Positions 6,551 through 23,697 of a DNA stretch of 31,678 nt are shown one piece after another (position 1 is the stretch's first letter; each line of letters starts with the position of its first letter). The stretch is from a virus, in IMG/VR virus record IMGVR_UViG_3300032401_002335, positions 1-31,678 of that record; one strand, written 5' to 3'. Made by a program: the position numbers and the translations under genes. The notes below the pieces were generated by a model that searched no databases, was not told the DNA's origin, and worked only from the letters and a program-made list of their open reading frames with translations.

Positions 6551-6769
6551 ATGATTCCCGTAAAACCTTTTGAATGCAGTAAATGCCATGCCATGGTCTT
6601 CACATTGGCTCACATCCACGCCATGCTGTGCAATGAATATGTGTCCAACCCAGCGCTTGTTGCCAACACTCACCTATTCTATGCTCAGAACAGGAGTTTC
6701 CTTGCTACCCAATTGGAAGGTAAAGCGCATAAAACTACCAAAGGACGAGTACGAAAGTATAAGACTTGA
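6551..6769 (+). CDS. Small protein with N-terminal zinc-finger-like motif
   Basis: An AAGGAG Shine-Dalgarno site five bases upstream supports the start at ATG 6551. The 72-residue product has a Cys/His pattern near the N-terminus (ECSKC ... HIHAMLC) and a basic C-terminus (KAHKTTKGRVRKYKT). Its 3' part overlaps the HNH endonuclease frame by up to 89 bp, so one of the two starts may be misplaced. Function unknown. Confidence 0.5.
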   Translation: MIPVKPFECSKCHAMVFTLAHIHAMLCNEYVSNPALVANTHLFYAQNRSFLATQLEGKAHKTTKGRVRKYKT

Positions 6770-6965
6770 GGTATATGAATCTCAAGGATGGAGATGTGCC
6801 CACTGTGCTGAGATGAAGCCCTTGACGCTCGACCATATCATCAAACGTAGCCAGGGTGGTGGGGATGAGCGGTCAAATTTAAGAGGGCTGTGTTTGGAAT
6901 GTCATGATTACATGGACAATCAGGGCGGTAAATCCAAAGAGAAAAATGATGCGGAGGTAGTTTAA
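6681..6965 (+). CDS. HNH endonuclease
   Basis: The core of an HNH nuclease is clear: GWRCAHC, then LTLDHIIKRSQGG with the catalytic D-H pair, then NLRGLCLECHDY containing the conserved Asn, Cys pair and final His. The start is uncertain; ATG 6681 gives 94 residues, while a longer frame from 6570 has an implausible N-terminus that shadows the zinc-finger gene. Free-standing HNH proteins in phages act as homing endonucleases or packaging nickases; the position beside a tRNA-like element and two Mom-like genes favours a mobile endonuclease. Its last 15 bases lie within the acceptor and D-stem of the first tRNA-like element. Confidence 0.8.
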   Translation: MLRTGVSLLPNWKVKRIKLPKDEYESIRLEVYESQGWRCAHCAEMKPLTLDHIIKRSQGGGDERSNLRGLCLECHDYMDNQGGKSKEKNDAEVV

Positions 6966-7023
6966 TGGTAGAACAAGCGACCCAATCGCAAGGTGGCGGT
7001 TCAAATCCGACCTCTCCGCTCCA
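6951..7023 (+). ncRNA. tRNA-like element 1, overlapping start of Mom-like gene 1
   Basis: Bases 6951-7023 fold as a 73-nt tRNA-like cloverleaf ending in CCA. The acceptor GCGGAGG (6951-6957) pairs with TCTCCGC (7013-7019) followed by T and CCA; D stem GTTT/GAAC closes a loop AATGGTA containing GG; anticodon arm GCGA/TCGC closes CCCAA; the T arm is GGCGG, loop TTCAAAT, CCGAC. Departures from a normal tRNA are the short anticodon stem, no U33, a G-A mismatch in the T stem and one extra C between T stem and acceptor. The ATG of the Mom-like gene (6965) lies in the D loop. It resembles tRNA-Gly in the body, but the loop reads CCA. It could be a decayed tRNA or a regulatory tRNA mimic. Confidence 0.7.
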
Positions 7024-7585
7024 AAAAACACCGTGGGTAAGGCAACTCACATCTTTAGAGGCTAATGCCATGCTTGAAAAATGGCATTATTTAGGACGGT
7101 GTCCTGCTATTATTTTTGCAGTAGGCCATGAAGATGGGTGCTGTGTCTTTTCTACTCCCAGATCACGAGTTATGCAAGAAAAATACAAACCACTAAAATT
7201 GATTGAACTTGTTCGTATGGTAGGTTCTCCTGGTCATAAATTTGCCATGTCTTCTCTAATGGCTGTTGCCGCTAGAGAAGCCAAGAAGCGCGGATACGAT
7301 GTTATTGTAACGTATTCCGATCCCTATGCTGGACATACGGGACAGGTTTATAGGGCGGCTGGATATGAAGATGACGGCCCCATTGGAAAAGATGGTCATC
7401 CTTTAATTTTTTTGGATGGAAAACTTGTAGCTCCTAAAACTTTTTACGGACGACACGGAACGCAATCTATCCCTAAACTTAAAGAAATTTACGGAAGTCG
7501 CCTGGAAACAAAGTCCAAACCGCTTAAAAATCGTTTTATGAAATGGCTTGTTCAAAAACAAAAACAGGACAAAAGGCGGATATAG
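6965..7585 (+). CDS. Mom-like DNA-modification protein 1 (GNAT fold)
   Basis: The body matches the Mom family of phage DNA-modification proteins, GNAT-fold enzymes that in phage Mu convert adenine to N6-carbamoylmethyl-adenine and protect DNA from restriction. Seen are KWHY at residues 39-42, a beta-strand region IIFAVGHEDGC, and TYSDPYAGHTGQVYRAAGY from residue 116, the hallmark DPxxGHxGxxYxAAG segment. The C-terminus is highly basic. The frame opens at ATG 6965 in the D loop of the tRNA-like element, and the first 20 residues (with GGGSNPTSPLQ) are its translation; a start at ATG 7070 is possible but would begin only three residues before KWHY. A second Mom-like gene follows after 3 bp. The substrate and exact modification are inferred. 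Confidence 0.75.
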   Translation: MVEQATQSQGGGSNPTSPLQKTPWVRQLTSLEANAMLEKWHYLGRCPAIIFAVGHEDGCCVFSTPRSRVMQEKYKPLKLIELVRMVGSPGHKFAMSSLMAVAAREAKKRGYDVIVTYSDPYAGHTGQVYRAAGYEDDGPIGKDGHPLIFLDGKLVAPKTFYGRHGTQSIPKLKEIYGSRLETKSKPLKNRFMKWLVQKQKQDKRRI

Positions 7586-7647
7586 CTTATGGAAAGCGTC
7601 AGAATCCAATCTGAAGATGGCGGATCGAAACCGACCTATCCGCTCCA
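7576..7647 (+). ncRNA. tRNA-like element 2, overlapping start of Mom-like gene 2
   Basis: Bases 7576-7647 repeat the architecture of element 1 with a different sequence. Acceptor GCGGATA pairs perfectly with TATCCGC (7637-7643), followed by T and CCA; D stem GCTT/AAGC closes ATGGA; anticodon arm TCAGA/TCTGA closes ATCCAA; the T arm is GGCGG, loop ATCGAAA, CCGAC, then the same extra C. Compared with element 1 the acceptor, D and anticodon stems show paired changes, which indicates that the fold is conserved. The T-stem G-A mismatch and the extra C are shared. The ATG of Mom-like gene 2 (7589) lies in the D loop, as in element 1. T54 is replaced by A, so it is unlikely to be an ordinary elongator tRNA. 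Confidence 0.72.
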
Positions 7648-8200
7648 TTCCCTTTATGTGGTAAAATGTGGGCTGGACGTTGTTAAATCTTTTGTGGAAA
7701 AGTGGCACTATTCCCATTCGGTATTTGGAGTTACAACAACGGTTTGCTTTGCTGTAATACATGAAGACGTTGTGGTTGGGGCTGCAATCTTTGGCCTACC
7801 AGCTGGAACCGGTGTCTATGAGAAGTACAGCGATCATGGTAAGCATAAGTTGCCTGAACTGAGACGGTTCTGCCTGATTGATGATCTTCCTAAAAACGCA
7901 GAGACCAGAACTCTTGGCGTGATGCTACGACAACTAAGATACGATGGGTATGAAAGGATTCTGAGTTATGCAGATCCGGCCTATGGCCACCAGGGAACTA
8001 TATACAAGGCGGCTGGGTTTACGCTTCTTGGAAAGACAAATTCAAGAAAGCATTGGACCTGGAAGGGTAAGAAATATCCAGACAGAAATATTCACCAGAT
8101 TCACTTCAAATATCATATTCAGTTGAGATCCGCTATTGCATTCGGAGAAGCTACACCGGTTAAAATTCCCGGTAAATTAATTTATCTCAGAAATTTATAA
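7589..8200 (+). CDS. Mom-like DNA-modification protein 2 (GNAT fold)
   Basis: This 203-residue protein is a clearer Mom-family member: KWHYSHSVFG (from residue 38), a strand EDVVVGAAIFGLPAGTG, LRRFCLIDDLPKNAETR, and SYADPAYGHQGTIYKAAGF from residue 126, followed by the KHW/WKGKKYPDR basic C-terminal part. In the known family these residues form the acetyl-CoA-type fold that modifies adenine in DNA. The N-terminus (IQSEDGGSKPTYPLH) is the translation of the second tRNA-like element, matching the corresponding peptide of the first gene. The two proteins are distant paralogues in tandem. No Com-like translational activator is seen nearby, although several small zinc-binding proteins are. Neither gene body contains AACAGGA except at its extreme 3' end. 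Confidence 0.8.
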   Translation: MESVRIQSEDGGSKPTYPLHSLYVVKCGLDVVKSFVEKWHYSHSVFGVTTTVCFAVIHEDVVVGAAIFGLPAGTGVYEKYSDHGKHKLPELRRFCLIDDLPKNAETRTLGVMLRQLRYDGYERILSYADPAYGHQGTIYKAAGFTLLGKTNSRKHWTWKGKKYPDRNIHQIHFKYHIQLRSAIAFGEATPVKIPGKLIYLRNL

Positions 8201-11517: not shown

Positions 11518-12717
11518 ATGATTCCCTTGATGATCAACGCTTTTTATAACGAACAGGATACCCGCCGCGCGCTCGCTTGCTTCATTCTGGATGCCAAGAA
11601 CCGGTTATCCATGGGCCCACAGTGCCTAGAGTTCGAGCGCCAGTTTGCTCTGTTCCAGGGACGCCACTATGCTGTATTATTCAACAGTGGCAGTAGCGCC
11701 AATCTTGCCTTGTTACAGGCCATGAAGATACTTGGCTACCTGCGTGATGGAGACACCGTTGGCTTCAGTGCTTTAACCTGGGCAACGAATGTGATGCCTA
11801 TCATTCAGATGAATCTCATTCCTGTTCCAGTGGATATCGAGACTAACACACTGAACGTTAGCTCGCGTACCCTTGGCAATACCCTTGACGATAGTTACCT
11901 CCGTGTCCTGTTTTTAACCAACGCCCTGGGTTTTGCCGGTGACCTGGACAGAATAGCCAGCATGTGTCGGGACGACGACTGTGTGTTAATAGAGGACAAC
12001 TGCGAATCACTTGGATCCGAATTGCGTTTAAACAGCAATATTCCCGCTTCCACTAAAACAGGAAACTTCGGACTAGCCTCCACATTTTCCTTCTATGCTG
12101 CCCATCACATTTCTACCATAGAAGGAGGGATGGTCTGTACCGACAACCAGGACCTGGATGAAAACCTTCGGATGGTTCGCGCGCACGGATGGGACAGAGA
12201 TCTGAGGTACGAGCGCAAACAGAAGATCCGTGACAAGTATGACATTAACAATGAGTTATACGCCCGCTACACCTTCTATGACCTTGCGTTTAACATCCGT
12301 CCCACGGAGGTAACAGGATTCCTGGGCATCAAACAACTCGCCTACCTTCCGGAGATCATAGCCAAGCGGCAGGCGAATTTTCTGCGTGTAGACGAGGCTA
12401 TCCGACAGAACGAGGACCTTATTCCTGTTTTGCACGACAATCTTGTAGTTAAGTCCATTTTTACGCTGCCGATTATCGCGCGGAGTCCTGTTCTGAAAAG
12501 CAAATATATCGAGCGGTTTTCGACCCGAGGCATTGAAGTTCGACCTGTGATCGCTGGAAATATACAAAGCCAACCCTTCTACAAGAAGTACGTACGCCGT
12601 AAATTCCGGCTCCCGGGAGCTGAAACTGTGGATGCACAGGGCTTTTATAGCGGTAACTGTCCTGAATATGACGAAAAACAAATTGACACGATCATAGGGG
12701 CCATAAATGGGCCATAA
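11518..12717 (+). CDS. DegT/DnrJ-family PLP enzyme, ColD/RfbH-like sugar 3-dehydratase
   Basis: This 399-residue protein has the DegT/DnrJ/EryC1/StrS aminotransferase fold: NSGSSANLALLQAM (PLP phosphate binding), LIEDNCESLGSE (Asp for the PLP ring) and FSFYAAHHISTIEGGMV. In ordinary sugar aminotransferases the last motif has a Lys that binds PLP; here the aligned residue is His 196. That replacement is the mark of the 3-dehydratases ColD (GDP-4-keto-6-deoxy-mannose) and RfbH/E1 (CDP-sugar). I therefore infer removal of the 3-hydroxyl from a 4-keto sugar nucleotide. The neighbouring GDP-fucose-synthase-like gene fits a colitose-type (GDP) pathway, but no GDP-mannose 4,6-dehydratase is in the window. 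A GAGGTAAC ribosome site precedes the ATG. Confidence 0.82.
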   Translation: MIPLMINAFYNEQDTRRALACFILDAKNRLSMGPQCLEFERQFALFQGRHYAVLFNSGSSANLALLQAMKILGYLRDGDTVGFSALTWATNVMPIIQMNLIPVPVDIETNTLNVSSRTLGNTLDDSYLRVLFLTNALGFAGDLDRIASMCRDDDCVLIEDNCESLGSELRLNSNIPASTKTGNFGLASTFSFYAAHHISTIEGGMVCTDNQDLDENLRMVRAHGWDRDLRYERKQKIRDKYDINNELYARYTFYDLAFNIRPTEVTGFLGIKQLAYLPEIIAKRQANFLRVDEAIRQNEDLIPVLHDNLVVKSIFTLPIIARSPVLKSKYIERFSTRGIEVRPVIAGNIQSQPFYKKYVRRKFRLPGAETVDAQGFYSGNCPEYDEKQIDTIIGAINGP

Positions 12718-12733
12718 TGTCCAACGTTGGACA
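12718..12733. repeat. Palindrome TGTCCAACGTTGGACA, copy 4
   Basis: Perfect copy at the junction between the PLP-enzyme stop and the next small gene. An AACAGGA motif follows at 12737-12743. Confidence 0.95.
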
Positions 12734-12746
12734 TAGAACAGGACAA

Positions 12747-12923
12747 ATGGTCACAGCCCTAGTAGTTAAATGCCGACTCTGCAAGCGCAAGGAAACGTTC
12801 ACTGTTAGAGACAAGACCAACATGCGCCATCTAGCGGCCAAAGCTGGGTGGCTGGAGAAACATAACGGGTGGGAATGCAGCTGCAGGAAGGTGGATCTTT
12901 CTATTGGAGAACAGGATGAATAA
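12747..12923 (+). CDS. Small zinc-binding protein
   Basis: The start is taken as ATG 12747 (MVTALVVKCRLCKRKETF), preceded by ACAGGAC; an upstream ATG at 12717 would add ten residues encoded by the palindrome. The 58-residue product has CRLC and CSCRK cysteine groups and an acidic C-terminus. It resembles small phage zinc-ribbon proteins of unknown role. It lies between two sugar-pathway genes and overlaps the next by 8 bp. Confidence 0.6.
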   Translation: MVTALVVKCRLCKRKETFTVRDKTNMRHLAAKAGWLEKHNGWECSCRKVDLSIGEQDE

Positions 12924-13845
12924 GGAATCTACGATCTACGTGGCTGGACATACGGGACTCCTAGGATCGGCCATAGTCCGCAGATTGAAGCAGGATGGAT
13001 ACGATAACCTGATCCTAAGAACCCACCGGCAGATGGATCTGACTGACCAGTTCGAGGTCAATCGGTTTTTTAGGCGCGAGCATCCGGAGTATGTGTTCCT
13101 GTGTGCCGCCCTGGTGGGTGGAATCCATGCCAATGCGTGTGGGCAGGCTGACTTCCTGTATCAGAATCTTCAAATCCAGAATAATATTATCTGGAGTGCA
13201 TTCAAGAATGACGCGGAGCGGTTGCTTTTCATAGGAAGCTCCTGTATTTACCCGCAGAAGTGCGAGCAACCCATGAAAGAGGAATATCTGATGCAGGGGC
13301 CTCCTGAGCCATTGAATGAGGGGTATGCCATGGCCAAAATTTCTGGACTTTTGTTGTGCAAGTATATTTATAGACAATATGGAAGCGGATTTATATCCTG
13401 TATGTTGCCAAACATCTACGGACCCAACGATAACTTTGATCAAAAGTACGCTCATGTTATCTCGGGTCTCATTGTTCGTATGCACGAAGCCAAGGAGAAG
13501 AAGGAACGCTCGTTTGTTGTGTGGGGAACCGGAAACGTGAAACGCGAATTCATCTACTCTGATGATGCGGCTGCCGCTGCCATTTGGATGATGAAAAATT
13601 ACTTCAATCACCGGTTTATGAACGTGGGAACGGGAAAAGAGTACACTATTAAACAGGTAGTGGAGATTGTGGCCAGAAATGTTGGATACAATGGGGCCAT
13701 TGTTTACGATCATAATAAACCGGACGGTGCCGTAAGGAAACTTCTGGATGGTAGCATGATGGTGTCTACCGGATGGTTGCCCAAGGTAGATCTGGAACAG
13801 GGCATTGCGCTAACATATTCATGGTATCAAAAACATGTTTTATAG
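12916..13845 (+). CDS. GDP-L-fucose-synthase-like (WcaG/ColC-type) epimerase/reductase
   Basis: This 309-residue extended short-chain dehydrogenase starts at ATG 12916 behind GGAG. Motifs in order: the NAD(P)-binding VAGHTGLLGSAIV, LCAALVGGIHAN, the catalytic GSSCIYP with EGYAMAK (Ser and Y-x-x-x-K), PNIYGPNDNFD, and REFIYSDDAA. These match GDP-L-fucose synthase (WcaG) and ColC, which epimerise C3/C5 and reduce the 4-keto group of GDP-4-keto-6-deoxy sugars. Together with the ColD-like enzyme upstream it may finish a GDP-dideoxyhexose, or act on a GDP-heptose-derived sugar; the substrate cannot be decided from sequence. It overlaps the next gene by 11 bp. Confidence 0.85.
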   Translation: MNKESTIYVAGHTGLLGSAIVRRLKQDGYDNLILRTHRQMDLTDQFEVNRFFRREHPEYVFLCAALVGGIHANACGQADFLYQNLQIQNNIIWSAFKNDAERLLFIGSSCIYPQKCEQPMKEEYLMQGPPEPLNEGYAMAKISGLLLCKYIYRQYGSGFISCMLPNIYGPNDNFDQKYAHVISGLIVRMHEAKEKKERSFVVWGTGNVKREFIYSDDAAAAAIWMMKNYFNHRFMNVGTGKEYTIKQVVEIVARNVGYNGAIVYDHNKPDGAVRKLLDGSMMVSTGWLPKVDLEQGIALTYSWYQKHVL

Positions 13846-14644
13846 GGATCTTGAAGATAAAGCGAACTGGGTACGGCGAGAAACACTTCTTATTCACAAG
13901 CGCGCGCAGGGGACCAGGATATCGTCGTCCCTCTCGTGTGTAGAGATCCTTACCGTCCTGTTCTATGGTGGAATTTTGGCTTATAAGGATTCTGAGCCTC
14001 TATGGGAAGGTCGAGACCGTCTTATTGTGAGCAAGGGCCATGGGAGTATAGCTATGTACCCCATCCTCTCAGATATTGGATTCTTTCCGCAAATAGAACT
14101 GGAACGAGTGTGCCAGGATGGTGCCATGCTTGGATCTATACCCGATCCAACCATCCCTGGGTACGAGTGCCTTGGAGGTTCACTTGGACACGGTCTTGGT
14201 GTAGCATGTGGAGTTGCCCTAGCTCTTAAGCGCCAGAACAGGACTCAGCGTGTTTACTGCCTGATGGGAGACGGAGAGTTAAATGAGGGGTCCGTATGGG
14301 AAGCCTTGATGTTTGCAAGGCACCACCAGATTGGAAATCTGATAATAATAATAGACGCCAATGGATCGTCTATGATGGGTAGGTGCCAGGATGTATTAAG
14401 GCTTGGGGCAACGGAGCCGTTCAGTTGTTTTAATTGTGAGATAAGACAAACAGATGGGCATTCTGTAGAACAGATTTATAATCAATTGTTTGGGCTTAAG
14501 CTCTCGTCTCTTCTTAGACCGGGCGTCCTAATTGCCAACACTATAAAGGGCAAAGGTGTTCCCGAGCTAGAGAGCGACCCATTAAGCCACATCAGGAATA
14601 TCTCACCAGACAGGGTAGACGAACTGTTAAAGGAGCTGCCATGA
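13835..14644 (+). CDS. Transketolase, N-terminal (TPP-binding) subunit
   Basis: This 269-residue protein matches the N-terminal half of transketolase: VSKGHGSIAMYPIL, GSLGHGLGVACGVALA and the TPP/metal motif GDGELNEGSVWEA with the downstream NLIIIIDAN. Split transketolases are known from archaea and from bacterial sugar-biosynthesis clusters. With the C-terminal subunit next door it would move two-carbon units between sugar phosphates, and could supply sedoheptulose-7-phosphate for the heptose genes at 25.9-29.5 kb. It overlaps the partner by 4 bp (ATGA). Confidence 0.9.
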   Translation: MFYRDLEDKANWVRRETLLIHKRAQGTRISSSLSCVEILTVLFYGGILAYKDSEPLWEGRDRLIVSKGHGSIAMYPILSDIGFFPQIELERVCQDGAMLGSIPDPTIPGYECLGGSLGHGLGVACGVALALKRQNRTQRVYCLMGDGELNEGSVWEALMFARHHQIGNLIIIIDANGSSMMGRCQDVLRLGATEPFSCFNCEIRQTDGHSVEQIYNQLFGLKLSSLLRPGVLIANTIKGKGVPELESDPLSHIRNISPDRVDELLKELP

Positions 14645-15585
14645 AACGAGCAATGCGTGACGCATTCATAGAAGAGTTGGCTCTGCGCATGCGTGATGAC
14701 GACTCGATTTTTTTCCTGACAGCGGATCTTGGAGCCCCAGCGCTTGACCAGTTGAAGGCTGATTTTCCAGACAGATTCATAAATCTTGGAATCGCAGAGC
14801 AAAATTTGATAAACGTTGCAACCGGACTGGCGCTGGAAAACAGGAAAGTCTACGCCTACGCCATAGCCCCATTCGTTACCATGAGGGCGTTTGAGCAAAT
14901 TCGCAACCTAGCCCTGTTATCGCAGATCCGTCCTATAAACGTCAACATCATCGGAATTGGTGCAGGAATGAGTTATGTTACGTCGGGTCCGCAGCACCAT
15001 GCGCTGGAAGACATTTCGATCATCCGGACGCTGCCTAATATTGTCCTGTTTTCTCCGTCTGACCTTGGTTTGACTAGAGAGTTTGTTGACTACTCGCTGA
15101 ATAATAAGTGTCCAAAGTACATACGCTTAGACGGGGAACCCGTTGGCTACCTAAACGATGAGGCTATAATATCTGAGGGCCTTAGGGAAATCATAACAGG
15201 AAAAGACTCGTGCATTGTGGCAACGGGACACATGGTTCACACGGCCATAGAGGCCTCTAAGAAATTGTCCAACGTTGGATATGAGGTTGGTGTAATTGAT
15301 CTGTTTATGTTGAAGATGACTCCGACGCTTAAGAGAGACCTTACCGAATTCCTTAGGGGATACATGCAGGTATTTACTCTTGAGGAGGGATTTCTTGGCG
15401 CTGGAGGTGTTGACTCAGTGGTAATGGGTCTGTCAAATGATGATAACGAGGGTCCGCTCCAAGTGATATCAATGGGGCTGAGGGATCGATATGCCTTTGA
15501 GGTTGGTAACAGGACTTTCCTGCACAACAGGGCCGGGATCGATGTGGATGGGGTGGTGGAGACGGTGCTTATGAACTTAGCTTAG
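14641..15585 (+). CDS. Transketolase, C-terminal (pyrimidine-binding) subunit
   Basis: This 314-residue protein covers the Pyr and C-terminal domains of transketolase/DXS type: the start of the Pyr domain with FFLTADLG, NLGIAEQNLINVATGLAL containing the conserved Glu that activates TPP, and the C-terminal domain with IVATGHMVHTAIEA and TLEEGFLGAGGVDSVV. It works with the upstream N-terminal subunit. One palindrome copy (15266-15281) falls in the C-terminal domain. Its stop codon meets the predicted original end of the inverted GIY-YIG gene. Confidence 0.9.
   Translation: MKRAMRDAFIEELALRMRDDDSIFFLTADLGAPALDQLKADFPDRFINLGIAEQNLINVATGLALENRKVYAYAIAPFVTMRAFEQIRNLALLSQIRPINVNIIGIGAGMSYVTSGPQHHALEDISIIRTLPNIVLFSPSDLGLTREFVDYSLNNKCPKYIRLDGEPVGYLNDEAIISEGLREIITGKDSCIVATGHMVHTAIEASKKLSNVGYEVGVIDLFMLKMTPTLKRDLTEFLRGYMQVFTLEEGFLGAGGVDSVVMGLSNDDNEGPLQVISMGLRDRYAFEVGNRTFLHNRAGIDVDGVVETVLMNLA
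15266..15281. repeat. Palindrome TGTCCAACGTTGGATA, copy 5
   Basis: The central 12-mer TCCAACGTTGGA is intact and the final C of the consensus is T. Read as SNVGY in transketolase. Confidence 0.85.
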
Positions 15586-15711
15586 ATTGGTTTTATTAGG
15601 GAGATTTGACGTAGGATTTTAATTAGAGATTTTCTGGCTCTTCTTCTTGCGTGACCGTTTTTGATACTCTTTTTATGTTTAACAGAAAGTTTTCTACCAG
15701 TTAAAGTCTTG
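15582..15711 (-). pseudogene. Out-of-frame 3' end of the GIY-YIG gene
   Basis: Read on the minus strand with one A fewer in the A7 run, this stretch continues the NUMOD3 protein for about 43 residues (TGRKLSVKHKKSI, NGHARRRARKS) up to TAA at 15582. It explains an otherwise empty gap. Slippage, a real mutation or a sequencing error are all possible. Confidence 0.75.
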
Positions 15712-16413
15712 CTAGTTTTTTTCTCTAGCTTCTTTAGAGATTATTCTACCAGTATTTGCATCGCTAATCAATCTTCTGGTTGTTTCTGAAACTTCATGTC
15801 CAAGATGCCCATCTCCAATTCTTTTTCTATGTTCTTCAGACAGTTTTACTCCAGTATGAGATTTGCTCATCCTTTTTCTGGATTCATCTGACACTTTGTG
15901 TCCCTTGTTGGCCTTACTTATATTTGCTTTGGTTTCTTCGGAACGGTGAGTGCCTCTATGTGCGTTCCCTATTTTTTCTCTGGTTTCTTTGGGTAACGAC
16001 TTGCCTCTATGAAAATCTCCCATCCTTTTTCTGGATTCATCTGACACTTTGTGTCCTAGAGCGTTTTTATTACCCATACTTCCATTACTTATTTTTTTCC
16101 TTGTCTCTTCTGATGGATTTGGAGAGCCTTCACCGCCATCGGTTGAGTTGACCAAGTCTGCTCCGATTTGTCTGAAGAATTTTATCCACCCAATTTCATC
16201 CTCTGATCTTAAGGAATTATCAACGTCTGCTAGAAGTTCTATTGTTGGTCTTACTCCATCATTAAGAAGTGATTTTATCCAACAGCTTTTGTGTGTTTTT
16301 TCTTTTTCTGAAATATGATTTGATAACCTTCTCCAAAGTGGTTCCCGTGTTACTCCAACATATCTTACCTTGTCATTACGTGGATCTTTAAGGGCATATA
16401 CGTGAGTGGTCAT
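15712..16413 (-). CDS. GIY-YIG homing endonuclease with NUMOD3 repeats, C-terminus frameshifted
   Basis: The protein begins at ATG 16413 (MTTHVYALKDPRN) with the GIY-YIG motif HVYALKDP ... VRYVGVT, followed by the shared DLVNSTDGGEG segment and five or more NUMOD3 repeats (S-D-E-S-R-K-R-M type). It is related to the endonuclease at 865-1608. The frame ends at a TAG after EAREKN, directly behind a run of seven A (plus-strand T 15716-15722). Deleting one A reopens a frame encoding another NUMOD3 unit (TGRKLSVKHKKSI) and a basic tail to a stop at 15582, where it meets the transketolase stop. The nuclease domain is complete, so the product may still be active. The gene is AT-rich and has no AACAGGA. 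Confidence 0.87.
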   Translation of the reverse strand: MTTHVYALKDPRNDKVRYVGVTREPLWRRLSNHISEKEKTHKSCWIKSLLNDGVRPTIELLADVDNSLRSEDEIGWIKFFRQIGADLVNSTDGGEGSPNPSEETRKKISNGSMGNKNALGHKVSDESRKRMGDFHRGKSLPKETREKIGNAHRGTHRSEETKANISKANKGHKVSDESRKRMSKSHTGVKLSEEHRKRIGDGHLGHEVSETTRRLISDANTGRIISKEAREKN

Positions 16414-16419
16414 ACAAAC

Positions 16420-16425
16420 ATTATA
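16420..16425 (-). promoter_or_regulatory. Possible -10 box for the GIY-YIG gene
   Basis: TATAAT on the minus strand ends six bases before the ATG at 16413, which would place transcription start at or very near the start codon. No good -35 box is found at 16-18 bp (TAAGAA at 17 bp). A TTGACA lies only 9 bp upstream, too close to pair with it. Confidence 0.4.
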
Positions 16426-17119
16426 CAACACGCTTGTCAAATTTCTTATCTAACCTAGCATAGCTAACACTCCAGCTGCGTCCACGACCAGATTGCAAAT
16501 CCGCGCTTCCATCTCCATGCTTAACAACAAGGGCGCTTGTCACAGCCGTTCGCCACATTCTGTTACGGTCAAATGGAGCCATGCGTGTGCGGATACAGAA
16601 CTCCTCATCTTCTCCGCCATACGAAGTGAACGCTTCTGAAAGTAGTCCAATCTGATCAATTAGTTGTCGTTTTATGTAGACACATGGGAAACACACATTT
16701 TCCAAATGGACGATCTTAAACTCCTCATCTACTTTCCATGAACGATACCGGTTGTGCCAACGTTGTGCCACGCTTCCAACGCACCCACGGATTAAAGGAG
16801 ATAGAACCCCAACGTTTTCATACTTGTATGCTAAATCATGGAGTTTTTTGAAGAAGCCCTGTTCCAATATAACCGTATCGTCATTTAGTAAAACGACATC
16901 TTTATCCTCAAGCGCATTGATTCCTAGATTAATCGCACGAGAAAAAACGAACCTTCCCTTGGGATAATCTATTCTTTCCCCAAGACCGTAATCTGTTTGA
17001 TGGCCGTTGGCTATGACGATGATTCTTGGCCATGGCTTTGGAATGAATTCGTGAAACGATTTAACTAGGGGTTGAATTATATCTTGGTAGCGATTCGGGA
17101 TTATGATTCCGTAGTTCAC
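16421..17119 (-). CDS. Glycosyltransferase family 2-like protein
   Basis: This 232-residue protein begins with a GTG start that overlaps the upstream stop. It has a GT-A fold pattern: an N-terminal IIIPNRYQD strand, an acidic nucleotide-sugar site LLNDDTVIL (about residues 75-83) and a later GGEDEEFCIR motif that would hold the catalytic base region of GT2 enzymes. There is no membrane segment. Family known: transfer of sugars from nucleotide donors to glycans or proteins; donor and acceptor are not predictable. It is the last gene of the minus-strand glycan operon. Confidence 0.82.
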   Translation of the reverse strand: MNYGIIIPNRYQDIIQPLVKSFHEFIPKPWPRIIVIANGHQTDYGLGERIDYPKGRFVFSRAINLGINALEDKDVVLLNDDTVILEQGFFKKLHDLAYKYENVGVLSPLIRGCVGSVAQRWHNRYRSWKVDEEFKIVHLENVCFPCVYIKRQLIDQIGLLSEAFTSYGGEDEEFCIRTRMAPFDRNRMWRTAVTSALVVKHGDGSADLQSGRGRSWSVSYARLDKKFDKRVV

Positions 17120-17289
17120 CTTTTTATTACCTCTCCACGCGAAGTTGTTCTATGCTGTTCTGTGCTATGTGGGCACGTCCACCACCAAAACTCTCCATCA
17201 TACTCTACCCTATGTCTGCAGTAGCACGAGGCACATTTTTTGCAAGTGTAGCTGGGATCATTCCCTTTCTGGTGTATGCACTTTTTCAT
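17116..17289 (-). CDS. 57-residue Cys/His-rich microprotein
   Basis: A frame from ATG 17289 to TGA 17116 fills the gap between two glycosyltransferase genes and overlaps both (ATGA upstream, GTGA downstream), as elsewhere in this operon. The product has cysteines at 4, 16, 19, 22, 24 and 39 with nearby histidines, and a GEFWWWTCPH segment, so it is probably a zinc-binding protein. No family is recognised. Perfect stop-start overlaps make it very likely a true gene. Confidence 0.75.
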   Translation of the reverse strand: MKKCIHQKGNDPSYTCKKCASCYCRHRVEYDGEFWWWTCPHSTEQHRTTSRGEVIKR

Positions 17290-18116
17290 AGCGTTCCCTT
17301 ATACGGAGCAGGATCTAATACTACAGCGTCGTTTCGTAACAGGACTTCAGGCGTTGGAAAATACATCCATTCGCGCCAGAGACTGCGAATCCCCTCTTCG
17401 CCATGGTCATCAAGGAAGATGTTGTAGTGACGCCAATGTGTGTGGTAGAATTCCGGACATCCCCGCGCGTCAGCCGCTGCGATCGACGCGCGATTGCGAG
17501 CAAGCTTTTTAAGGAAGATGTCCTCAGACCGGTAGGGAAAGTGCCGCATTTCTATACACTCCTCACCTCCCGGGCTAACACCACCACCACTTGCCATATG
17601 GGCACCATGATTGCCCTCGTCAATGATTATATCTGGATCGGCGCGCACGATTACCTTGTTTAATCCAAGCGGGTTTTCCAGTCTCCACGGCATCCTCTTG
17701 TAGGGATTTTCGTTTATAGGGTCACGTCCGGTGCAGTAGTGATTGAATATCTTGACCATAATAACCCTGTTCTGGCTATCTCGGATGACCTGAGACAGTG
17801 ACCGATTGGGATCAGTGGACACGAATAATTCGTCTGCATCGTTCGGGAGCACGAAACTAGCACCACGTTCATAGGCGATGTTCATCATGTTGGTTTCTTT
17901 GGGCCCATTGAATGCTGCGATATCGTCGTCACGTATCAGGATCAGGCGAGGGTTGTCATGCGCCATGGTCTCAAGGATTTCAAGGGTGCCATCGTCAGCC
18001 TGTATGTGGGATACGATAATTCCATCTATGCCTTCGGCAAACAAGTGACTGATAGTGTATCCAATAATGTCTACCTCGGCCCCACATATGATTGTTGCCC
18101 AAACTTCTTTTTTCAT
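17286..18116 (-). CDS. Glycosyltransferase family 2-like protein (DUF/GT92-like)
   Basis: This 276-residue protein fits the 'glycosyl transferase family 2_4' type: an N-terminal strand, VSHIQADDGTLEIL, the acidic site VLPNDADELFV (about residues 90-100), the VMVKIFNHY-like segment and a late HTHWRHYN. Such enzymes act in capsule or lipopolysaccharide synthesis. Start and stop overlap both neighbours. There is no signal peptide and no membrane helix. Confidence 0.8.
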   Translation of the reverse strand: MKKEVWATIICGAEVDIIGYTISHLFAEGIDGIIVSHIQADDGTLEILETMAHDNPRLILIRDDDIAAFNGPKETNMMNIAYERGASFVLPNDADELFVSTDPNRSLSQVIRDSQNRVIMVKIFNHYCTGRDPINENPYKRMPWRLENPLGLNKVIVRADPDIIIDEGNHGAHMASGGGVSPGGEECIEMRHFPYRSEDIFLKKLARNRASIAAADARGCPEFYHTHWRHYNIFLDDHGEEGIRSLWREWMYFPTPEVLLRNDAVVLDPAPYKGTL

Positions 18117-18955
18117 TTTTTCTCCTGGTATACGAATTCGAATTCACTGGCTACATATATTCCATCTGAAGCGGTTATCCTGTAACCAGACCTCGTGTCC
18201 GTATTTTTGTCCGGATGACCCGCCCAAATGATAACAGAGCTTTTGTCTCTCTCAATAAACGCCCCGGGATATGGACGAGTTACAGCACGTACAAGTCGGT
18301 CAATCTCAGTAACTGTCATTGTTGGGTTTATGCGGCCATCCTCGGGTTTACGTTGTGGCCACACTGTAGCCCGCGATTCATCCTGTTTTATATACACAGC
18401 ACCCCACGATTTAAGACAAGGGTATGAGTATCGGATAGCTTCTCGATGGGCCGCGCAAACCTTGGCATACAGTGATCCGGCATCCTCACGATCCTCAATG
18501 GGTATCTTTACCTGATGGAGAATTACCCCCGTATCCACACCTTCATCCATTCGAAACAGGGTTACGCCGGTCACAGTCAGTCCCTTGAGTATCGCCCAAG
18601 GAATAGCCGCTCGCCCCCTTCCTTCAGGTAGCAGGGATGGGTGCATGCCAAGAACGCCTAGATTCGGTGCATCGAGGACGGCTCGGCCCGCTATCTGAGA
18701 CCAGCCTACTATAAACAGACGGTCTATGTCTGCGGTACGGATGGCTTTGATTATATGATCTTCATTTACATTCTTTGTTTTGATTAGTGGAATAGAGTGT
18801 TCTGCGCAAAAATGATCGAGGTATATCCTACCGGACTTTTTAGGTGCTAGATCGTTATGTAATGTTACAGCCAGGGATACCTCGGCTCCGCATTTGCAAA
18901 GCTCATCAAGACAGTCCAGACCAAGTTGTACGCAGGTGACAAAACCAAATTTCAT
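18113..18955 (-). CDS. Formyltransferase-like protein (Fmt/ArnA-N type)
   Basis: This 280-residue protein matches N10-formyl-tetrahydrofolate-dependent formyltransferases: MHPSLLPEGRGRAAIPWAI (about residues 104-122) and the DEGVDTGVIL motif with the catalytic Asp. In sugar clusters this family formylates 4-amino- or 3-amino-dideoxy sugars. In Fmt and ArnA the SLLP motif is preceded by N-x-H; here it is G-M-H, so the usual catalytic Asn is absent. The C-terminal domain is divergent. The neighbouring deacetylase and 4,6-dehydratase support an amino-sugar role, but no sugar aminotransferase with a Lys is in the window. Confidence 0.82.
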   Translation of the reverse strand: MKFGFVTCVQLGLDCLDELCKCGAEVSLAVTLHNDLAPKKSGRIYLDHFCAEHSIPLIKTKNVNEDHIIKAIRTADIDRLFIVGWSQIAGRAVLDAPNLGVLGMHPSLLPEGRGRAAIPWAILKGLTVTGVTLFRMDEGVDTGVILHQVKIPIEDREDAGSLYAKVCAAHREAIRYSYPCLKSWGAVYIKQDESRATVWPQRKPEDGRINPTMTVTEIDRLVRAVTRPYPGAFIERDKSSVIIWAGHPDKNTDTRSGYRITASDGIYVASEFEFVYQEKK

Positions 18956-19662
18956 GGGCTCCTCCGTATGCCAACAAACACGGATTGGAAGGCTTCCGCG
19001 AACCGCATCCCAGCCTGTGCCCCTCGTGTCGTGGCTAAGGCGCGAAATACTTCTGGGCTTCTAGGATGCGGATAGGTGCGCATGACGCCTTTGTATGAGT
19101 TGACTGCTTCAATCTTCTTTTCAAGTGCGTCTGAGCCGATCTCAATAAAAAGATTGGGCCTGAATCCGCTTACGCCAGCCTCGAATCCCCAATCGGTTGA
19201 GGAGGGGACCTCCATGAGCCACAGCCCAAGCAATGGTGTAAGATCAGGAAGGCGCTGGAATATCCTACTTGCAGCCTGACAGGCTAACGATACTTGTAAG
19301 TGATCGTTGTTTAGATCTGATGGGTGATGTGTAATTATAATGTTCGCTGACGTTTGTTTGATTGCATCTTCGATAAACTGAACAAGTTCCAGGTGGGGTA
19401 CGGTGTTGAATTTGATATCACGAAATCCACCCAGAATTTTATTCTCTGCTTTGATCAAAACATGTGCGCGGGCGATGTCTTCATGTAGCCTTGGAAGAGT
19501 TGGTCTGTTGACCCGAGTTTCTACCGCTCCAGATAAGATACACGTCGATACCTTAGCCCCACTTTCCGTCATAACAATGCTTGACGCACCGCATCCTATA
19601 GATTCATCGTCTGGGTGTGCTGCTACAATTAGAATTTTAAGACTTGCGAAATCTTGTATCAT
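18952..19662 (-). CDS. PIG-L/LmbE-family deacetylase
   Basis: This 236-residue protein carries the PIG-L motifs: VAAHPDDESIGCG near the N-terminus (zinc-binding H-x-x-D-D) and ITHHPSDLNNDHLQV near residue 115. Known members remove N-acetyl groups from GlcNAc-type sugars in a zinc-dependent reaction. It would expose an amino group that the adjacent formyltransferase could modify. It overlaps that gene by 4 bp. Confidence 0.88.
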   Translation of the reverse strand: MIQDFASLKILIVAAHPDDESIGCGASSIVMTESGAKVSTCILSGAVETRVNRPTLPRLHEDIARAHVLIKAENKILGGFRDIKFNTVPHLELVQFIEDAIKQTSANIIITHHPSDLNNDHLQVSLACQAASRIFQRLPDLTPLLGLWLMEVPSSTDWGFEAGVSGFRPNLFIEIGSDALEKKIEAVNSYKGVMRTYPHPRSPEVFRALATTRGAQAGMRFAEAFQSVFVGIRRSP

Positions 19663-19675
19663 TCAACCCTTATTT

Positions 19676-20362
19676 CTAGTATCCCCAACCAGCCCGATGA
19701 AAACCAATGTTTGTAATTAGAGGAACGTCCCTCTGTTTACCCAGATAAGAACATAGTACATTCGGATATTTTTCTCTAAGTCTAAACATGAAATTTCCTT
19801 CCGAATACTCACAATCTGGCCAGCCGACCTCAACCACCCACCCTGGATACAAGCATGGATTGCAGGAAAAGTAACGATTGTGTTCGCACCAGTTAATACT
19901 TTCGTATGATTTGTCTGTAAAATCTTCGGGGTGTTGCAATAGCATATCACCTACCGCAAACTCATTACTGTTTACCGGATCTCGTTTTAAGACAACTTGA
20001 GCCATGTTCTTGTTTTGATCTAGGATCCATATCATGTCTTTGATCATAACAGGACGCTCAAGAACCCAATCGTCCTCTAAGTGGAACACAAAGTCTATGT
20101 CTTTAGGAATTAGGTCCCAGGTGCGGATCATGGACTTAGTGTATCCTATACGATCTTTGTGTTTGTCAATTACCGCAAATCTTCCGTACAGAGAGCGCTG
20201 GACGCCAGCTTGCCCGCTATCGTCTGATAGAATCGTATGATCAAAATAAAAACTTTCACCATCGTCTGTTACCAGATTGCGTTTAAACGATTCCAATGTT
20301 TTGGATAGAACGTCCGGGCGACCGTCAGTAAAGCATATCAGGCAAATCTTTGGTAAGCTCAT
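19676..20362 (-). CDS. Glycosyltransferase-like protein
   Basis: The start is ATG 20362, which overlaps the upstream stop as ATGA; an earlier ATG at 20374 is less likely. The 228-residue product has an N-terminal KICLICFTDGRPDVLSKTLE strand-helix, FVFHLEDDWVLERP as the acidic D-x-D-like site (about residues 93-106) and ends in GFHRAGWGY. It resembles GT2-type enzymes acting with a GT-A fold. Donor and acceptor are unknown. Confidence 0.75.
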   Translation of the reverse strand: MSLPKICLICFTDGRPDVLSKTLESFKRNLVTDDGESFYFDHTILSDDSGQAGVQRSLYGRFAVIDKHKDRIGYTKSMIRTWDLIPKDIDFVFHLEDDWVLERPVMIKDMIWILDQNKNMAQVVLKRDPVNSNEFAVGDMLLQHPEDFTDKSYESINWCEHNRYFSCNPCLYPGWVVEVGWPDCEYSEGNFMFRLREKYPNVLCSYLGKQRDVPLITNIGFHRAGWGY

Positions 20363-21039
20363 TTCCAGCCACAATCCTTGCTGTATCTGTCCGGATTCCA
20401 GATGTGCCCGTGACTCGCGGGATACCGTTGGTAGTAGAAGTTATCCACACTGGTTGAATATATTGGAAGCTTGTGGGCCAGGGCCCATTCTCCTAGCTCT
20501 GTGTCGGCCATAATTCCAGACCGGTTACAACGCCAATGATCGTTTTCGTTATATGTCTTAATGTTCAGGGCCATAGTGTCGCCCTGTACCCAGGTGGTTG
20601 TTCCGTCTGGCTGGATTATACCATGGCATTCGTCGTACTCCTGGCGATTCATTCCAATGAAGCGAACGTGGAATTTTGTCTTTCCCATTATAGCAGCTTC
20701 CGGATGTAACAAGAACATGTCGCGCGTCTCTTCGATGAACTTTGGTTCGTACCAGCAGTCATCGGACATAAGCATCATGAAGCCATCGTTGACTATTCTT
20801 CCTACGGTGTCGAACGCCTCTCGGTAGATTCCGGACAACTCGGTTTTGGGCGGTTCCCTTAAAACTAATGTGTGGATTCCCGCCTTGTCCAGCCATTCGG
20901 ATAGGTGTTCTGAATTAGCAAATTGAAATTCTGGAACAGAAAACACAGCCAGATCGGGTTTTACGGTCTGATGAGATAGGAACTCGATTATCTTGTCGTA
21001 GAAATTAGGACGTTTGGTTGGTAAAACGGTAATAATCAT
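20359..21039 (-). CDS. Glycosyltransferase-like protein, paralogue A
   Basis: The start at ATG 21039 (MIITVLPTKRPNFYD) overlaps the upstream stop as ATGA. The 226-residue product has an acidic site MLMSDDCWYEP (about residue 88), a MGKTKFHVRF segment and the ending FYYQRYPASHGHIW. Each of these has a counterpart in the next gene upstream (21036-21701), so the two are tandem paralogues. They belong to the GT-A group of glycosyltransferases by pattern, although the family number is not certain. Confidence 0.75.
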   Translation of the reverse strand: MIITVLPTKRPNFYDKIIEFLSHQTVKPDLAVFSVPEFQFANSEHLSEWLDKAGIHTLVLREPPKTELSGIYREAFDTVGRIVNDGFMMLMSDDCWYEPKFIEETRDMFLLHPEAAIMGKTKFHVRFIGMNRQEYDECHGIIQPDGTTTWVQGDTMALNIKTYNENDHWRCNRSGIMADTELGEWALAHKLPIYSTSVDNFYYQRYPASHGHIWNPDRYSKDCGWK

Positions 21040-21701
21040 GCAAACATATCTCCACATTTCCAAAGGTGACCATGCTCTTTGCCCCACCTTTGGTACCAAA
21101 AGTTTTCCTCTGATGTATAGCGCACCTTTAGACCTTCAGCAAAAAACGCCTTCATAATTGATACGTCGCCATACGGATCGTTTTCGTCAAATCTGATGGA
21201 CGGATACTTTCTATATCCCTCCACATTCATTGATATTGTGCCACCGCCCAGTCCAAGACCTGGATTTTCAGGATCTCCCACTTCGGGATACTTGGGTGGT
21301 CTGCTACCGTCCATCCATCGTGTGCGAACGTGCAGCTTGCCAATTATTACAGCGTCAGGATGCACAACCAGGGCACCAGCAGCCTCAGCTAAATAGTTTT
21401 CTCCGTACAAATTGTCATCTTCCAATAGGCAGATCATCCCAGTTTTTATAAGCCTCTCCGCAGCTGCGAAACATATGTTAAGTAGGTGTCCGGATACCAC
21501 ATTGTCATCGGGATTGCGAATTATAACAGGACAAACGTTCCAATATCTCAGGTATGTCTCAAAGTCCAACGTTGGACATTGCTCTTCTCGATCTATAAGA
21601 AGTATGGAGTAATCCGGCTTACGCTTCTGCAGCACTATGTTTTCTGCTAAGTATTGCCAGAATTCTGGTCGCTTGCTTGGGGTAACCGTTACTATTTGCA
21701 C
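21036..21701 (-). CDS. Glycosyltransferase-like protein, paralogue B
   Basis: This 221-residue protein opens with MQIVTVTPSKRPEFW, has CLLEDDNLYGENYL (about residue 93) as the likely metal and nucleotide-sugar site, IGKLHVRTRW, a GLGGGTISMN stretch and ends with FWYQRWGKEHGHLW. The parallel motifs in the gene downstream show tandem duplication. A palindrome copy encodes CPTLD near residue 42, at a place where paralogue A has no counterpart. It overlaps the 4,6-dehydratase by 10 bp. Confidence 0.75.
   Translation of the reverse strand: MQIVTVTPSKRPEFWQYLAENIVLQKRKPDYSILLIDREEQCPTLDFETYLRYWNVCPVIIRNPDDNVVSGHLLNICFAAAERLIKTGMICLLEDDNLYGENYLAEAAGALVVHPDAVIIGKLHVRTRWMDGSRPPKYPEVGDPENPGLGLGGGTISMNVEGYRKYPSIRFDENDPYGDVSIMKAFFAEGLKVRYTSEENFWYQRWGKEHGHLWKCGDMFA
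21563..21578. repeat. Palindrome AGTCCAACGTTGGACA, copy 6
   Basis: Fifteen of sixteen bases match; read on the minus strand as CPTLD in a glycosyltransferase. Confidence 0.9.
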
Positions 21702-22663
21702 TCGATCTCCTGTAACAGGGCAAGGATCTCTTGGTGGGATAACTGGCTTGTGTTGGTGGATGTGTATTCTCCTGTTCTGGTGGTGGTAATACTGTGCGGA
21801 GCATACTCTGGATGGACGCAGAAGTATAGAGAATTTTCTGTAGAACGTTTCATCTCGCCTTCGGTTACCAGGGACTCGTGAAGCTTTTCTCCAGGCCGGG
21901 GTCCTGTTATGTCAATTGGATGGTTTTCACCGAATGGGCTGTACTTGACGATCATGGCATACGCCAAGGCTTCCATTGTGCAGGCTGGTGCTTTGTGCGC
22001 AAAAATTTCTCCTCCAGACGTATTCTCCATAGCATACAATGCCAAGTCGCTTACCATCTTTGGTGTCAGATGAAAGCGCGTCATATCTCCCACGGTCAGC
22101 GTCAGGTGTTTCAGCTCACTGATCTGACGCATGAACAAGGGTACGACTGATCCACTGCTGCCTATTACGTTTCCCAGGCGTATGCAGCTGAATCGTGTAT
22201 AGCATGGTACCCTGTTCATATTGCAGACAATTTTCTCCATCATTGCCTTGCTGAGACCCATCGCTGAAACAGGATAAACGGCTTTATCGGTACTCAGGGC
22301 TACTACGGTCTTGACACCACACGCTATGGCGGCATCACAGACATTCTGAGATCCAAGTACATTGGTCTTTACCGCCTCCATCGGATTTACCTCGCAAGAC
22401 GGAACCTGTTTTAGGGCTGCAGCATGGAAAACGTAGTCCACATTGTACATAGCGTCGAAGATCCGCATCTTGTCGCGGGTGTCTCCAATTATATATGTGA
22501 ACTGCGGGAAGCGTGATTTCATTTTCCACTGTTGCTGTTCTCCGCGACTAAAAATTATGACTTTATGTTCCCCAAGTTTAAAAATGTCCTCGGCTACCCT
22601 GCTACCTATGTAGCCAGTTCCGCCTGTTATCAACACGGTTATCTTTGGCATAACCATCCTCAT
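21692..22663 (-). CDS. UDP-GlcNAc 4,6-dehydratase-like (PseB/FlaA1/CapD family)
   Basis: The start is taken as ATG 22663, forming ATGA with the upstream stop; MPKITVL at 22651 is an alternative. The 323-residue extended SDR has TGGTGYIGSRV (NAD(P) binding), AAALKQVPSCEVNPMEAVKT, LSTDKAVYPVSAMGLSKAM with the S/T-D-K catalytic site in place of Y-x-x-x-K, IRLGNVIGSSGSV and TGPRPGEKLHE. These are hallmarks of nucleotide-sugar 4,6-dehydratases of the PseB/FlaA1 type, which make UDP-4-keto-6-deoxy-HexNAc for pseudaminic acid, bacillosamine or capsule sugars. No aminotransferase that would follow it is present here. Confidence 0.88.
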   Translation of the reverse strand: MRMVMPKITVLITGGTGYIGSRVAEDIFKLGEHKVIIFSRGEQQQWKMKSRFPQFTYIIGDTRDKMRIFDAMYNVDYVFHAAALKQVPSCEVNPMEAVKTNVLGSQNVCDAAIACGVKTVVALSTDKAVYPVSAMGLSKAMMEKIVCNMNRVPCYTRFSCIRLGNVIGSSGSVVPLFMRQISELKHLTLTVGDMTRFHLTPKMVSDLALYAMENTSGGEIFAHKAPACTMEALAYAMIVKYSPFGENHPIDITGPRPGEKLHESLVTEGEMKRSTENSLYFCVHPEYAPHSITTTRTGEYTSTNTSQLSHQEILALLQEIECK

Positions 22664-22992
22664 TCTGTGCTCCAATCCGGCTCAACAACCGTTGGCCTTT
22701 TACCATCATTTTTCTTTCTGAATTCTTCGGGGCTGGTGAAACCGGCCACCCTGCCACGCTTGGTCTCAATAATCCAGGCGACCTCCTGCATTGTTCGCAG
22801 GTTGGTCTTGGCTCTGCTGTTGTAGGATGTGCATTCCACTATTTTTGTTTTAATTGGTGCGTCGAATTGCCAACATCTCATGAATTCCTCAGAATCGCCC
22901 TCCCCTTGAGCGAAGATGCAGTTCGAGCAACTCCTGCATAGAAAGGGTTTACCACCACGGGTTCCGTACTTGATGTTAATGGTCATTGCCAT
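22660..22992 (-). CDS. Small Cys-rich hypothetical protein
   Basis: This 110-residue protein has CRSCSNCIFAQGE near residue 19 and further Cys at about 40 and 54 (RCWQF, VECTSY), giving a probable metal site; the C-terminus is charged and hydrophilic. Cys spacing is compatible with either a zinc finger or an iron-sulfur site; neither can be settled here. It overlaps the upstream glycosyltransferase by one base and the downstream dehydratase by 4 bp, so it is clearly part of the glycan operon. Confidence 0.65.
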   Translation of the reverse strand: MAMTINIKYGTRGGKPFLCRSCSNCIFAQGEGDSEEFMRCWQFDAPIKTKIVECTSYNSRAKTNLRTMQEVAWIIETKRGRVAGFTSPEEFRKKNDGKRPTVVEPDWSTE

Positions 22993-23621
22993 TAATGCAC
23001 CTCACTCAGGCTGATACCAGAGGACAGCTCTAAAGGCTTCAGGCTGTCCAGTATGGATTTCATTAGGGCCTGGGGATTCTTTACAGCATTGCATCTTCCC
23101 TGTTTCGTAGAATGCGCTCTATAGATAGCATTTCTGCAGAGGTTGGTTCTTGCGCCGTAGAGCACAAGCTTACAGAAAAGGTGATAATCTTCCCAGGACT
23201 CCCAAGAACTATATCCACCTACCTTTATGAACAAGTCGCGTGGAAAAAGGGTTCCGATGCACATGTAGTTACCCTGAGCGAGGGGTCTCTTTGGAAGCTC
23301 AATGGGGGCGGGGATGACGCAGTCTCCATCTTGTACGTATCTCATCATTGGATACCTAAGATCACCCGTTCCAACTAACATCGCCTCAACGTACCCGGGT
23401 TCCAGCTCGTCATCTGCGTCCAAACATATAACCAGATCAGAGGTGGCTTTTGATATGGCCAGATTGCGAACCTCGTCAATCGGTCCTGTCATGCGATGTA
23501 GTCCGATAAATTCTTTAGGTTGTACGGTTTGCATTTTTACTGATCTTGCAGCGCGCTGATAAAGCGGTTGCCAAACCTGTGGGTCACCATAACTGGATAC
23601 GACAACGGAGACTGACGGCAT
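22992..23621 (-). CDS. Glycosyltransferase family 2 protein
   Basis: This 209-residue protein is a classic GT2: N-terminal SVSVVVSSYGDP, VRNLAISKATSDLVICLDADDELEPGYV carrying the D-A-D-D-E site near residue 75, and SWESWEDYHLFCKLV (E-D catalytic-base region). The start is ATG 23621 behind GGAG. It is the first gene of the minus-strand glycan operon, downstream of an extended -10 promoter and a GGGCCC hairpin. Confidence 0.88.
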   Translation of the reverse strand: MPSVSVVVSSYGDPQVWQPLYQRAARSVKMQTVQPKEFIGLHRMTGPIDEVRNLAISKATSDLVICLDADDELEPGYVEAMLVGTGDLRYPMMRYVQDGDCVIPAPIELPKRPLAQGNYMCIGTLFPRDLFIKVGGYSSWESWEDYHLFCKLVLYGARTNLCRNAIYRAHSTKQGRCNAVKNPQALMKSILDSLKPLELSSGISLSEVH

Positions 23622-23633
23622 CAATTAACTCCA

Positions 23634-23662
23634 GGGCCCAAAGCGGTGAGCGCTTCGGGCCC
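23634..23662 (-). repeat. Hairpin in the 5' leader of the glycosyltransferase operon
   Basis: GGGCCC-A-AAGCG and CGCTT-C-GGGCCC flank a GTGAG loop: 11 pairs with one A-C mismatch. It lies between the promoter at 23698-23726 and the first start codon, about 10 bp before the ribosome site. No T-run follows in either direction. It may be a stabilising leader hairpin or an attenuator, or a weak terminator of the recombinase gene. Confidence 0.65.
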
Positions 23663-23697
23663 CTAAAGAAACGAACTACGCACAGACCATCAAAAGC

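What the first reader, a model, noticed from the sequence alone, without database searches (positions are those of the whole stretch)
6951..7647. Two tRNA-like elements fused in frame to two tandem Mom-like genes
Both Mom-like genes start with an ATG in the D loop of a CCA-ending tRNA-like cloverleaf (6951-7023 and 7576-7647). In both, translation runs through the anticodon and T arms (GGGSNPTSPLQ and GGSKPTYPLH) straight into the Mom domain without a stop. The two elements differ in sequence but keep pairing: acceptor GCGGAGG/TCTCCGC versus GCGGATA/TATCCGC, D stem GTTT/GAAC versus GCTT/AAGC, and anticodon stem GCGA/TCGC versus CAGA/TCTG. Both share a T-stem G-A mismatch and an extra C, and both loops read CCA. 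Compensatory change together with an identical start-codon position argues for a maintained RNA structure rather than a chance tRNA relic. Mom expression is known to be tightly controlled in phage Mu; a tRNA mimic at the start codon (RNase P processing, synthetase or other tRNA-binding protein) would be a new control mode. I cannot exclude that this has been described.
Basis: partly seen in the sequence, partly recalled or inferred. Interest (0 to 1): 0.93.

Follow-up and report, generated by a model that had tools for sequence, protein, structure and literature searches.

The report
Glycine tRNA built into DNA-modification genes
Many uncultured phages carry a deformed glycine transfer RNA inside or beside the gene for Mom, an enzyme that adds a glycine-derived group to DNA, which suggests that these viruses bring their own tRNA to supply the glycine rather than to make protein.

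Summary
Both tRNA-like elements (6951-7023, 7576-7647) are real and are read in frame with two Mom-family genes.

The elements belong to a widespread family marked by one bulged A in the T stem. A pattern for that T arm found 109 IMG/VR stretches; nearly all sites adjoin a Mom gene (98 of 108 distinct sites, the exceptions mostly explained). The same pattern without the A found 120 ordinary tRNA-Gly stretches, none with Mom. The fold shows strong covariation. Glycine identity is kept while decoding features (7-nt anticodon loop, U33, wobble base) are not.

Elements occur at either end of Mom, so start-codon control cannot be the general role. In 64 of 65 sites at the 5' end the reading frame through the tRNA is the same, so in-frame dual coding is genuine.

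Best explanation: a dedicated, non-translational glycyl-tRNA that donates glycine to Mom. A 2026 meeting report says Mu adenine hypermodification depends on tRNA-Gly (PMC12908700). Charging and transfer for these elements remain untested.

The parts
6951..7023 (+). tRNA-Gly-like element 1: acceptor 6951-6957/7013-7019, D arm 6960-6974, anticodon arm 6977-6989 (loop CCCAA, 5 nt), T arm 6995-7012 with bulged A at 7010, U73 at 7020, encoded CCA 7021-7023
   Evidence: Rfam RF00005 32.8 bits; element model R1 82.7 bits; direct reading
7576..7647 (+). tRNA-Gly-like element 2: acceptor 7576-7582/7637-7643, D arm 7585-7597, anticodon arm 7599-7614 (loop ATCCAA, 6 nt), T arm 7619-7636 with bulged A at 7634, U73 at 7644, encoded CCA 7645-7647
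   Evidence: Rfam RF00005 40.1 bits; R1 69.9 bits; its free-energy minimum is this cloverleaf
6965..7585 (+). Mom 1 (206 aa); ATG in the D loop of element 1, GGAGG in the acceptor strand just upstream; its TAG stop (7583-7585) is positions 8-10 of element 2
   Evidence: PF25680 45 bits; phrog_1384 79.6 bits
7589..8200 (+). Mom 2 (203 aa); ATG in the D loop of element 2; Thr106 where the family has Ser (Mu Ser124)
   Evidence: PF25680 100.9 bits; AlphaFold pLDDT 91.6, first ~20 tRNA-encoded residues about 50-57; best PDB match Mu Mom 8BV8
6570..6965 (+). HNH endonuclease ORF whose TAA stop (6963-6965) overlaps the Mom 1 ATG (TAATG) inside element 1; may or may not belong to the system
   Evidence: PF01844; ORF list; direct reading

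Best explanation
Each element is a phage-encoded, non-translational glycine tRNA dedicated to Mom. Proposed steps: the mom transcript, or part of it, is processed to release the tRNA; host glycyl-tRNA synthetase charges it (identity set conserved); its bulged T stem and misshapen anticodon loop keep it away from EF-Tu and the ribosome; Mom, a GNAT-fold enzyme, takes the glycyl group and installs it on the N6 of adenine in phage DNA, giving the restriction-resistant glycinamide adduct. In the common 5' arrangement the tRNA sequence also encodes a short, probably disordered N-terminal tail of Mom, so one transcript may serve either as mRNA or as tRNA precursor. Shown here: tRNA-Gly structure, Mom linkage, frame conservation, loss of decoding features. 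Inferred: processing, charging, EF-Tu evasion, transfer.
For: Linkage: 118 of 124 bulged-A sites have a Mom ORF on the same strand nearby; 98 of 108 after removing duplicates and adding the genome hits; 0 of 120 stretches found with the same pattern minus the A. Genome collection: all 8 true cloverleaves share their stretch with Mom, 7 of them adjacent; the 5 hits without Mom are not cloverleaves. A reverse search from 80 Mom genes found 9 loci with the element, all with the bulged A, even where a T-stem pair covaries (L274). Covariation. Identity: U73 in 88 of 88, GCGG acceptor start in 87 of 88, CC in every anticodon loop, while loop length is 4-9 and U33 and the wobble base vary (control tRNA-Gly 31 of 35 with 7-nt loops). 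U73 was fixed by the search pattern, but all 9 elements found from Mom also have it. These are the published bacterial glycine identity elements (PMC9976931). Position-independent: 5', 3' and tandem. Mu hypermodification reported to depend on tRNA-Gly for glycyl transfer (PMC12908700). S. aureus keeps tRNA-Gly from EF-Tu through changes at 49-65 and 51-63.
Against: No charging, processing or DNA-modification data exist for these elements. Most Mom genes lack the element (70 of 80 in the Mom-based sample had none), so Mom does not need it in general and may use host tRNA-Gly. Some elements have normal 7-nt anticodon loops (15 of 82), so decoding is not excluded for all. Mom 2 of the window has Thr at the position of Mu Ser124, whose Ala mutant is inactive, so its activity is uncertain. 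The pattern used to collect elements fixed many T-arm and acceptor letters, so their conservation is partly by construction.
Confidence: 0.8

Rival explanations
1. The element is a cis-acting control element (tRNA mimic at the start codon): folding, RNase P cleavage or binding of GlyRS or Mom shuts off Mom translation, perhaps as feedback on charged tRNA-Gly.
For: Start codon and GGAGG lie inside the folded element in the window; the frame through the element is kept in 64 of 65 sites; Mu mom is under translational control by Com (PMC6483171).
Against: About 30 of 98 sites carry the element at or past the 3' end of Mom, two in tandem in L058; start position varies and 32 of 65 sites have no start in the D loop; glycine identity and CCA need not be kept by a folding switch.
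Confidence: 0.1
2. Ordinary phage tRNA-Gly for translation, or a decoy resistant to host anticodon nucleases, next to Mom by linkage only.
For: Phages often carry tRNAs; some elements have normal 7-nt loops.
Against: 0 of 120 ordinary tRNA-Gly loci have Mom; most elements have 4-, 5-, 6- or 8-nt loops and variable U33 and wobble base; bulged T stem in all; linkage recurs across a patchy Mom tree.
Confidence: 0.05
3. Chance fold or decaying tRNA relic, for example from an integration site.
For: ARAGORN does not call the two window elements.
Against: Covariation over 44 elements, Rfam scores above threshold, whole tRNA kept with CCA, at both 5' and 3' ends of Mom.
Confidence: 0.02

Closest known systems
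Phage Mu Mom (PF25680; PDB 8BV8)
   Same: Same protein family and fold; the window Mom model matches 8BV8 best; reported to depend on tRNA-Gly for glycyl transfer (PMC12908700)
   Different: The Mu-type locus (D108, L257) has no tRNA element within the stretch searched and would have to use host tRNA-Gly; Mu uses Com control, not tested in these loci
Non-proteinogenic tRNA-Gly of Staphylococcus aureus (peptidoglycan bridge synthesis)
   Same: Glycine identity kept, T-stem features that would weaken EF-Tu binding, dedicated to a non-ribosomal transferase (PMC4052509, PMC9976931)
   Different: S. aureus changes T-stem pairs and the D-loop GG; here one A is bulged and D-loop GG is mostly kept; acceptor is DNA, not peptidoglycan; tRNA overlaps the enzyme gene in frame
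Ordinary phage-encoded tRNA-Gly
   Same: Cloverleaf, U73, C35 C36, CCA
   Different: Ordinary ones have an unbulged T stem, usually a 7-nt loop with U33, and no Mom neighbour

Membership tests
Bacterial tRNA-Gly | Cloverleaf fold maintained by selection | tested here: met
   97.0% of cells paired, 14 of 21 pairs with double changes; RF00005 above threshold
Bacterial tRNA-Gly | Identity set G1-C72, C2-G71, C35, C36, U73 | tested here: met
   set from PMC9976931
Bacterial tRNA-Gly | 7-nt anticodon loop with U33, normal T stem (decoding tRNA) | tested here: not met
   15 of 82 with 7-nt loop, U33 57 of 88, bulged T stem in all; so not filed as an ordinary decoding tRNA-Gly
Bacterial tRNA-Gly | Charged with glycine | not testable with these tools
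   Needs an aminoacylation assay
Mom (PF25680) | Matches the curated family model | tested here: met
   45 and 100.9 bits against cut-off 27.1; 49 of 49 relatives match
Mom (PF25680) | GNAT fold as in 8BV8 | tested here: met
   Foldseek E 3.3e-13, TM 0.65
Mom (PF25680) | Conserved serine (Mu Ser124) | tested here: inconclusive
   Nearly invariant in the family; Mom 2 has Thr106
Mom (PF25680) | Makes the glycinamide-adenine modification | not testable with these tools
   Needs nucleoside mass spectrometry
Non-proteinogenic tRNA-Gly | Weakened EF-Tu binding through an altered T stem | tested here: inconclusive
   The T stem is altered (bulged A between the second and third pairs) but EF-Tu binding was not measured
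Non-proteinogenic tRNA-Gly | D-loop GG replaced | tested here: not met
   GG retained in most elements, including both window copies

The most novel reading that the evidence does not exclude
A dual-use gene: one stretch of DNA is at once a functional glycine tRNA and the in-frame start (or end) of the enzyme that consumes that tRNA, so each transcript becomes either tRNA substrate or enzyme mRNA, setting their ratio. It would be the first tRNA class dedicated to DNA modification.
Probability: 0.5. Interest if true: 0.95.

Novelty: new variant of a known kind. Interest (0 to 1): 0.87.

Why it matters
The donor used by Mom was open for decades (own knowledge), and a meeting report now names tRNA-Gly in Mu. 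A large set of phages that carry their own glycine tRNA fused to Mom gives independent evolutionary evidence for that chemistry, a ready substrate for biochemistry, and a sequence mark (bulged T-stem A) to test for recognition. It also extends dedicated non-ribosomal tRNAs from cell walls to DNA, and gives a clear case of a tRNA gene doubling as protein-coding sequence.

Tried and rejected
A first DNA pattern with one N too many found nothing. DNA-level search of the window region in isolated phages gave no match. Isolated-phage Mom loci (ICP1, D108, Enterococcus, Corynebacterium, Staphylococcus, Geobacillus, RaK2, Salmonella, S-SSM7, Fastidio) have no such element in the stretches searched (S-SSM7 has ordinary tRNAs nearby). 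L258 (human faecal phage record) and L302 carry an ordinary unbulged tRNA-Gly, so they were not counted. Five genome-collection hits were rejected as non-cloverleaves. Integration-site relic and chance were rejected on covariation. Free energy alone is weak evidence (z about -1.2 to -2.0) and is not relied on; the minimum for element 1 is not even the cloverleaf.

Full report
Observation. Both elements are present as described. Rfam tRNA scores 32.8 bits at 6952-7019 and 40.1 bits at 7576-7644, above the 29-bit threshold, although ARAGORN calls neither. The two ORFs, 6965-7585 and 7589-8200, match Mom (PF25680, 45 and 101 bits) and phrog_1384. The T stem is better read as five pairs with one bulged A than as a mismatch plus an extra base. 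The packing is extreme: the upstream HNH ORF ends in TAATG on the Mom 1 start inside element 1, and Mom 1 ends on the TAG that is positions 8-10 of element 2.

What the elements are. Read as tRNAs, both carry the bacterial glycine identity set: G1-C72, C2-G71, U73, and C35 C36 in the anticodon loop (set as reviewed in PMC9976931). This matters because the Mu Mom product is a glycinamide adduct of adenine (established knowledge, from memory), and a 2026 meeting report states that Mu adenine hypermodification depends on tRNA-Gly for transfer of a glycyl group (PMC12908700). The report is one sentence; no paper with the data was found in the library, and no description of a phage-encoded Mom tRNA was found. 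Preprints and most subscription journals are not held.

Breadth and specificity. Related Mom loci found by protein search carried the same element. A pattern for the bulged T arm and acceptor end then found 109 stretches in IMG/VR. Of 124 sites over all loci, 118 have a Mom ORF on the same strand nearby; after removing duplicates and adding the genome hits, 98 of 108. Of the ten without Mom, five are genome-collection hits that are not cloverleaves, four lie within about 300 bases of the end of the stored stretch, and L064 is followed in frame by what looks like a broken Mom N terminus. The Mom assignment was checked with Pfam: 49 of 49 sampled relatives. In GTDB genomes the 8 true cloverleaves share their stretch with Mom, 7 adjacent and one about 3 kb away.

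Unbiased check. Starting from Mom proteins instead, 9 of 80 loci carried the element and all 9 had the bulged A, including L274, where a T-stem pair changed from G-C to A-U around it. One further locus, L302, has an ordinary tRNA-Gly. So the element belongs to a minority of Mom genes. On a Mom tree it is scattered, with at least eight changes forced by well-supported branches, and the D108 (Mu-type) Mom is sister to a group with 3' elements. The tree is a quick one and some branches are long; window Mom 1 was labelled 3' in it only because element 2 follows it.

Structure and what is conserved. On 44 diverse elements, 97.0% of cells pair, 14 of 21 pairs have double changes, and the covariation score is 0.537 against 0.168 in shuffles; slid partners give 42-50%. 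Over 88 elements U73 is universal and every anticodon loop holds CC, but the loop is 4 to 9 nt long and U33 and the wobble base vary. In control phage tRNA-Gly, 31 of 35 loops are 7 nt and 30 of those 31 have U33. The parser favoured loops with CC in both sets and the search pattern fixed U73, so the contrast with the control and the Mom-based sample, not the absolute counts, are the evidence. Glycine identity is kept and decoding is not, as expected of a tRNA charged but withheld from the ribosome. S. aureus achieves this for its cell-wall tRNA-Gly through T-stem changes at 49-65 and 51-63; the bulge here lies in the same region, but EF-Tu binding was not tested.

Overlap with the coding sequence. 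In 65 sites the element lies at the 5' end of Mom; 64 share one frame, although the spacing from the CCA to the conserved His-Tyr motif varies from about 16 to 27 codons. In a second count of 65 in-frame sites, 62 are open through the whole element, all have a start in the D loop or within 30 nt upstream, and 27 have no start between element and motif. The exception, L014, reads in another frame. So translation does pass through the tRNA sequence; the tRNA consensus is closed in the other two frames, which fixes the frame for any upstream start. AlphaFold leaves the tRNA-encoded residues disordered while the Mom domain is confident; the closest solved structure is Mu Mom 8BV8. About 30 sites have the element at the 3' end, often using TAG of positions 8-10 as the Mom stop or read through, and L058 has two in tandem.

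Judgement. A dedicated glycyl-donor tRNA for Mom is the explanation that accounts for glycine identity, loss of decoding features, the T-stem mark, near-exclusive linkage with Mom and freedom of position. A start-codon switch accounts only for the 5' cases. The overlap may still create regulation, since a transcript cut into tRNA loses the Mom start. Charging, processing and transfer are inference. Because Mom and its reported use of tRNA-Gly are known, I rate it a new variant of a known kind, with a dual-use tRNA/mRNA gene as the more novel reading.

Noticed in passing
L014:2452-2894: A permuted tmRNA gene (Rfam tmRNA_permuted 78.4 bits; ARAGORN tmRNA*) lies a few hundred bases downstream of a Mom gene with its tRNA element on a 4.6-kb viral contig.
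   Followed up: no
window 11518-28763: A run of sugar-metabolism-like genes (DegT aminotransferase, nucleotide-sugar epimerase, transketolase half, formyltransferase, polysaccharide epimerase, GHMP kinase) in a phage contig.
   Followed up: partly
window 7589-8200: Mom 2 has Thr at the position of the nearly invariant serine (Mu Ser124); Mom 1 and Mom 2 are only distantly related (28% identity in the alignment), so they were not made by recent duplication.
   Followed up: partly
L302:2808-2881: An ordinary unbulged tRNA-Gly about 1.2 kb downstream of a Mom gene, possibly an independent way to supply glycyl-tRNA.
   Followed up: no
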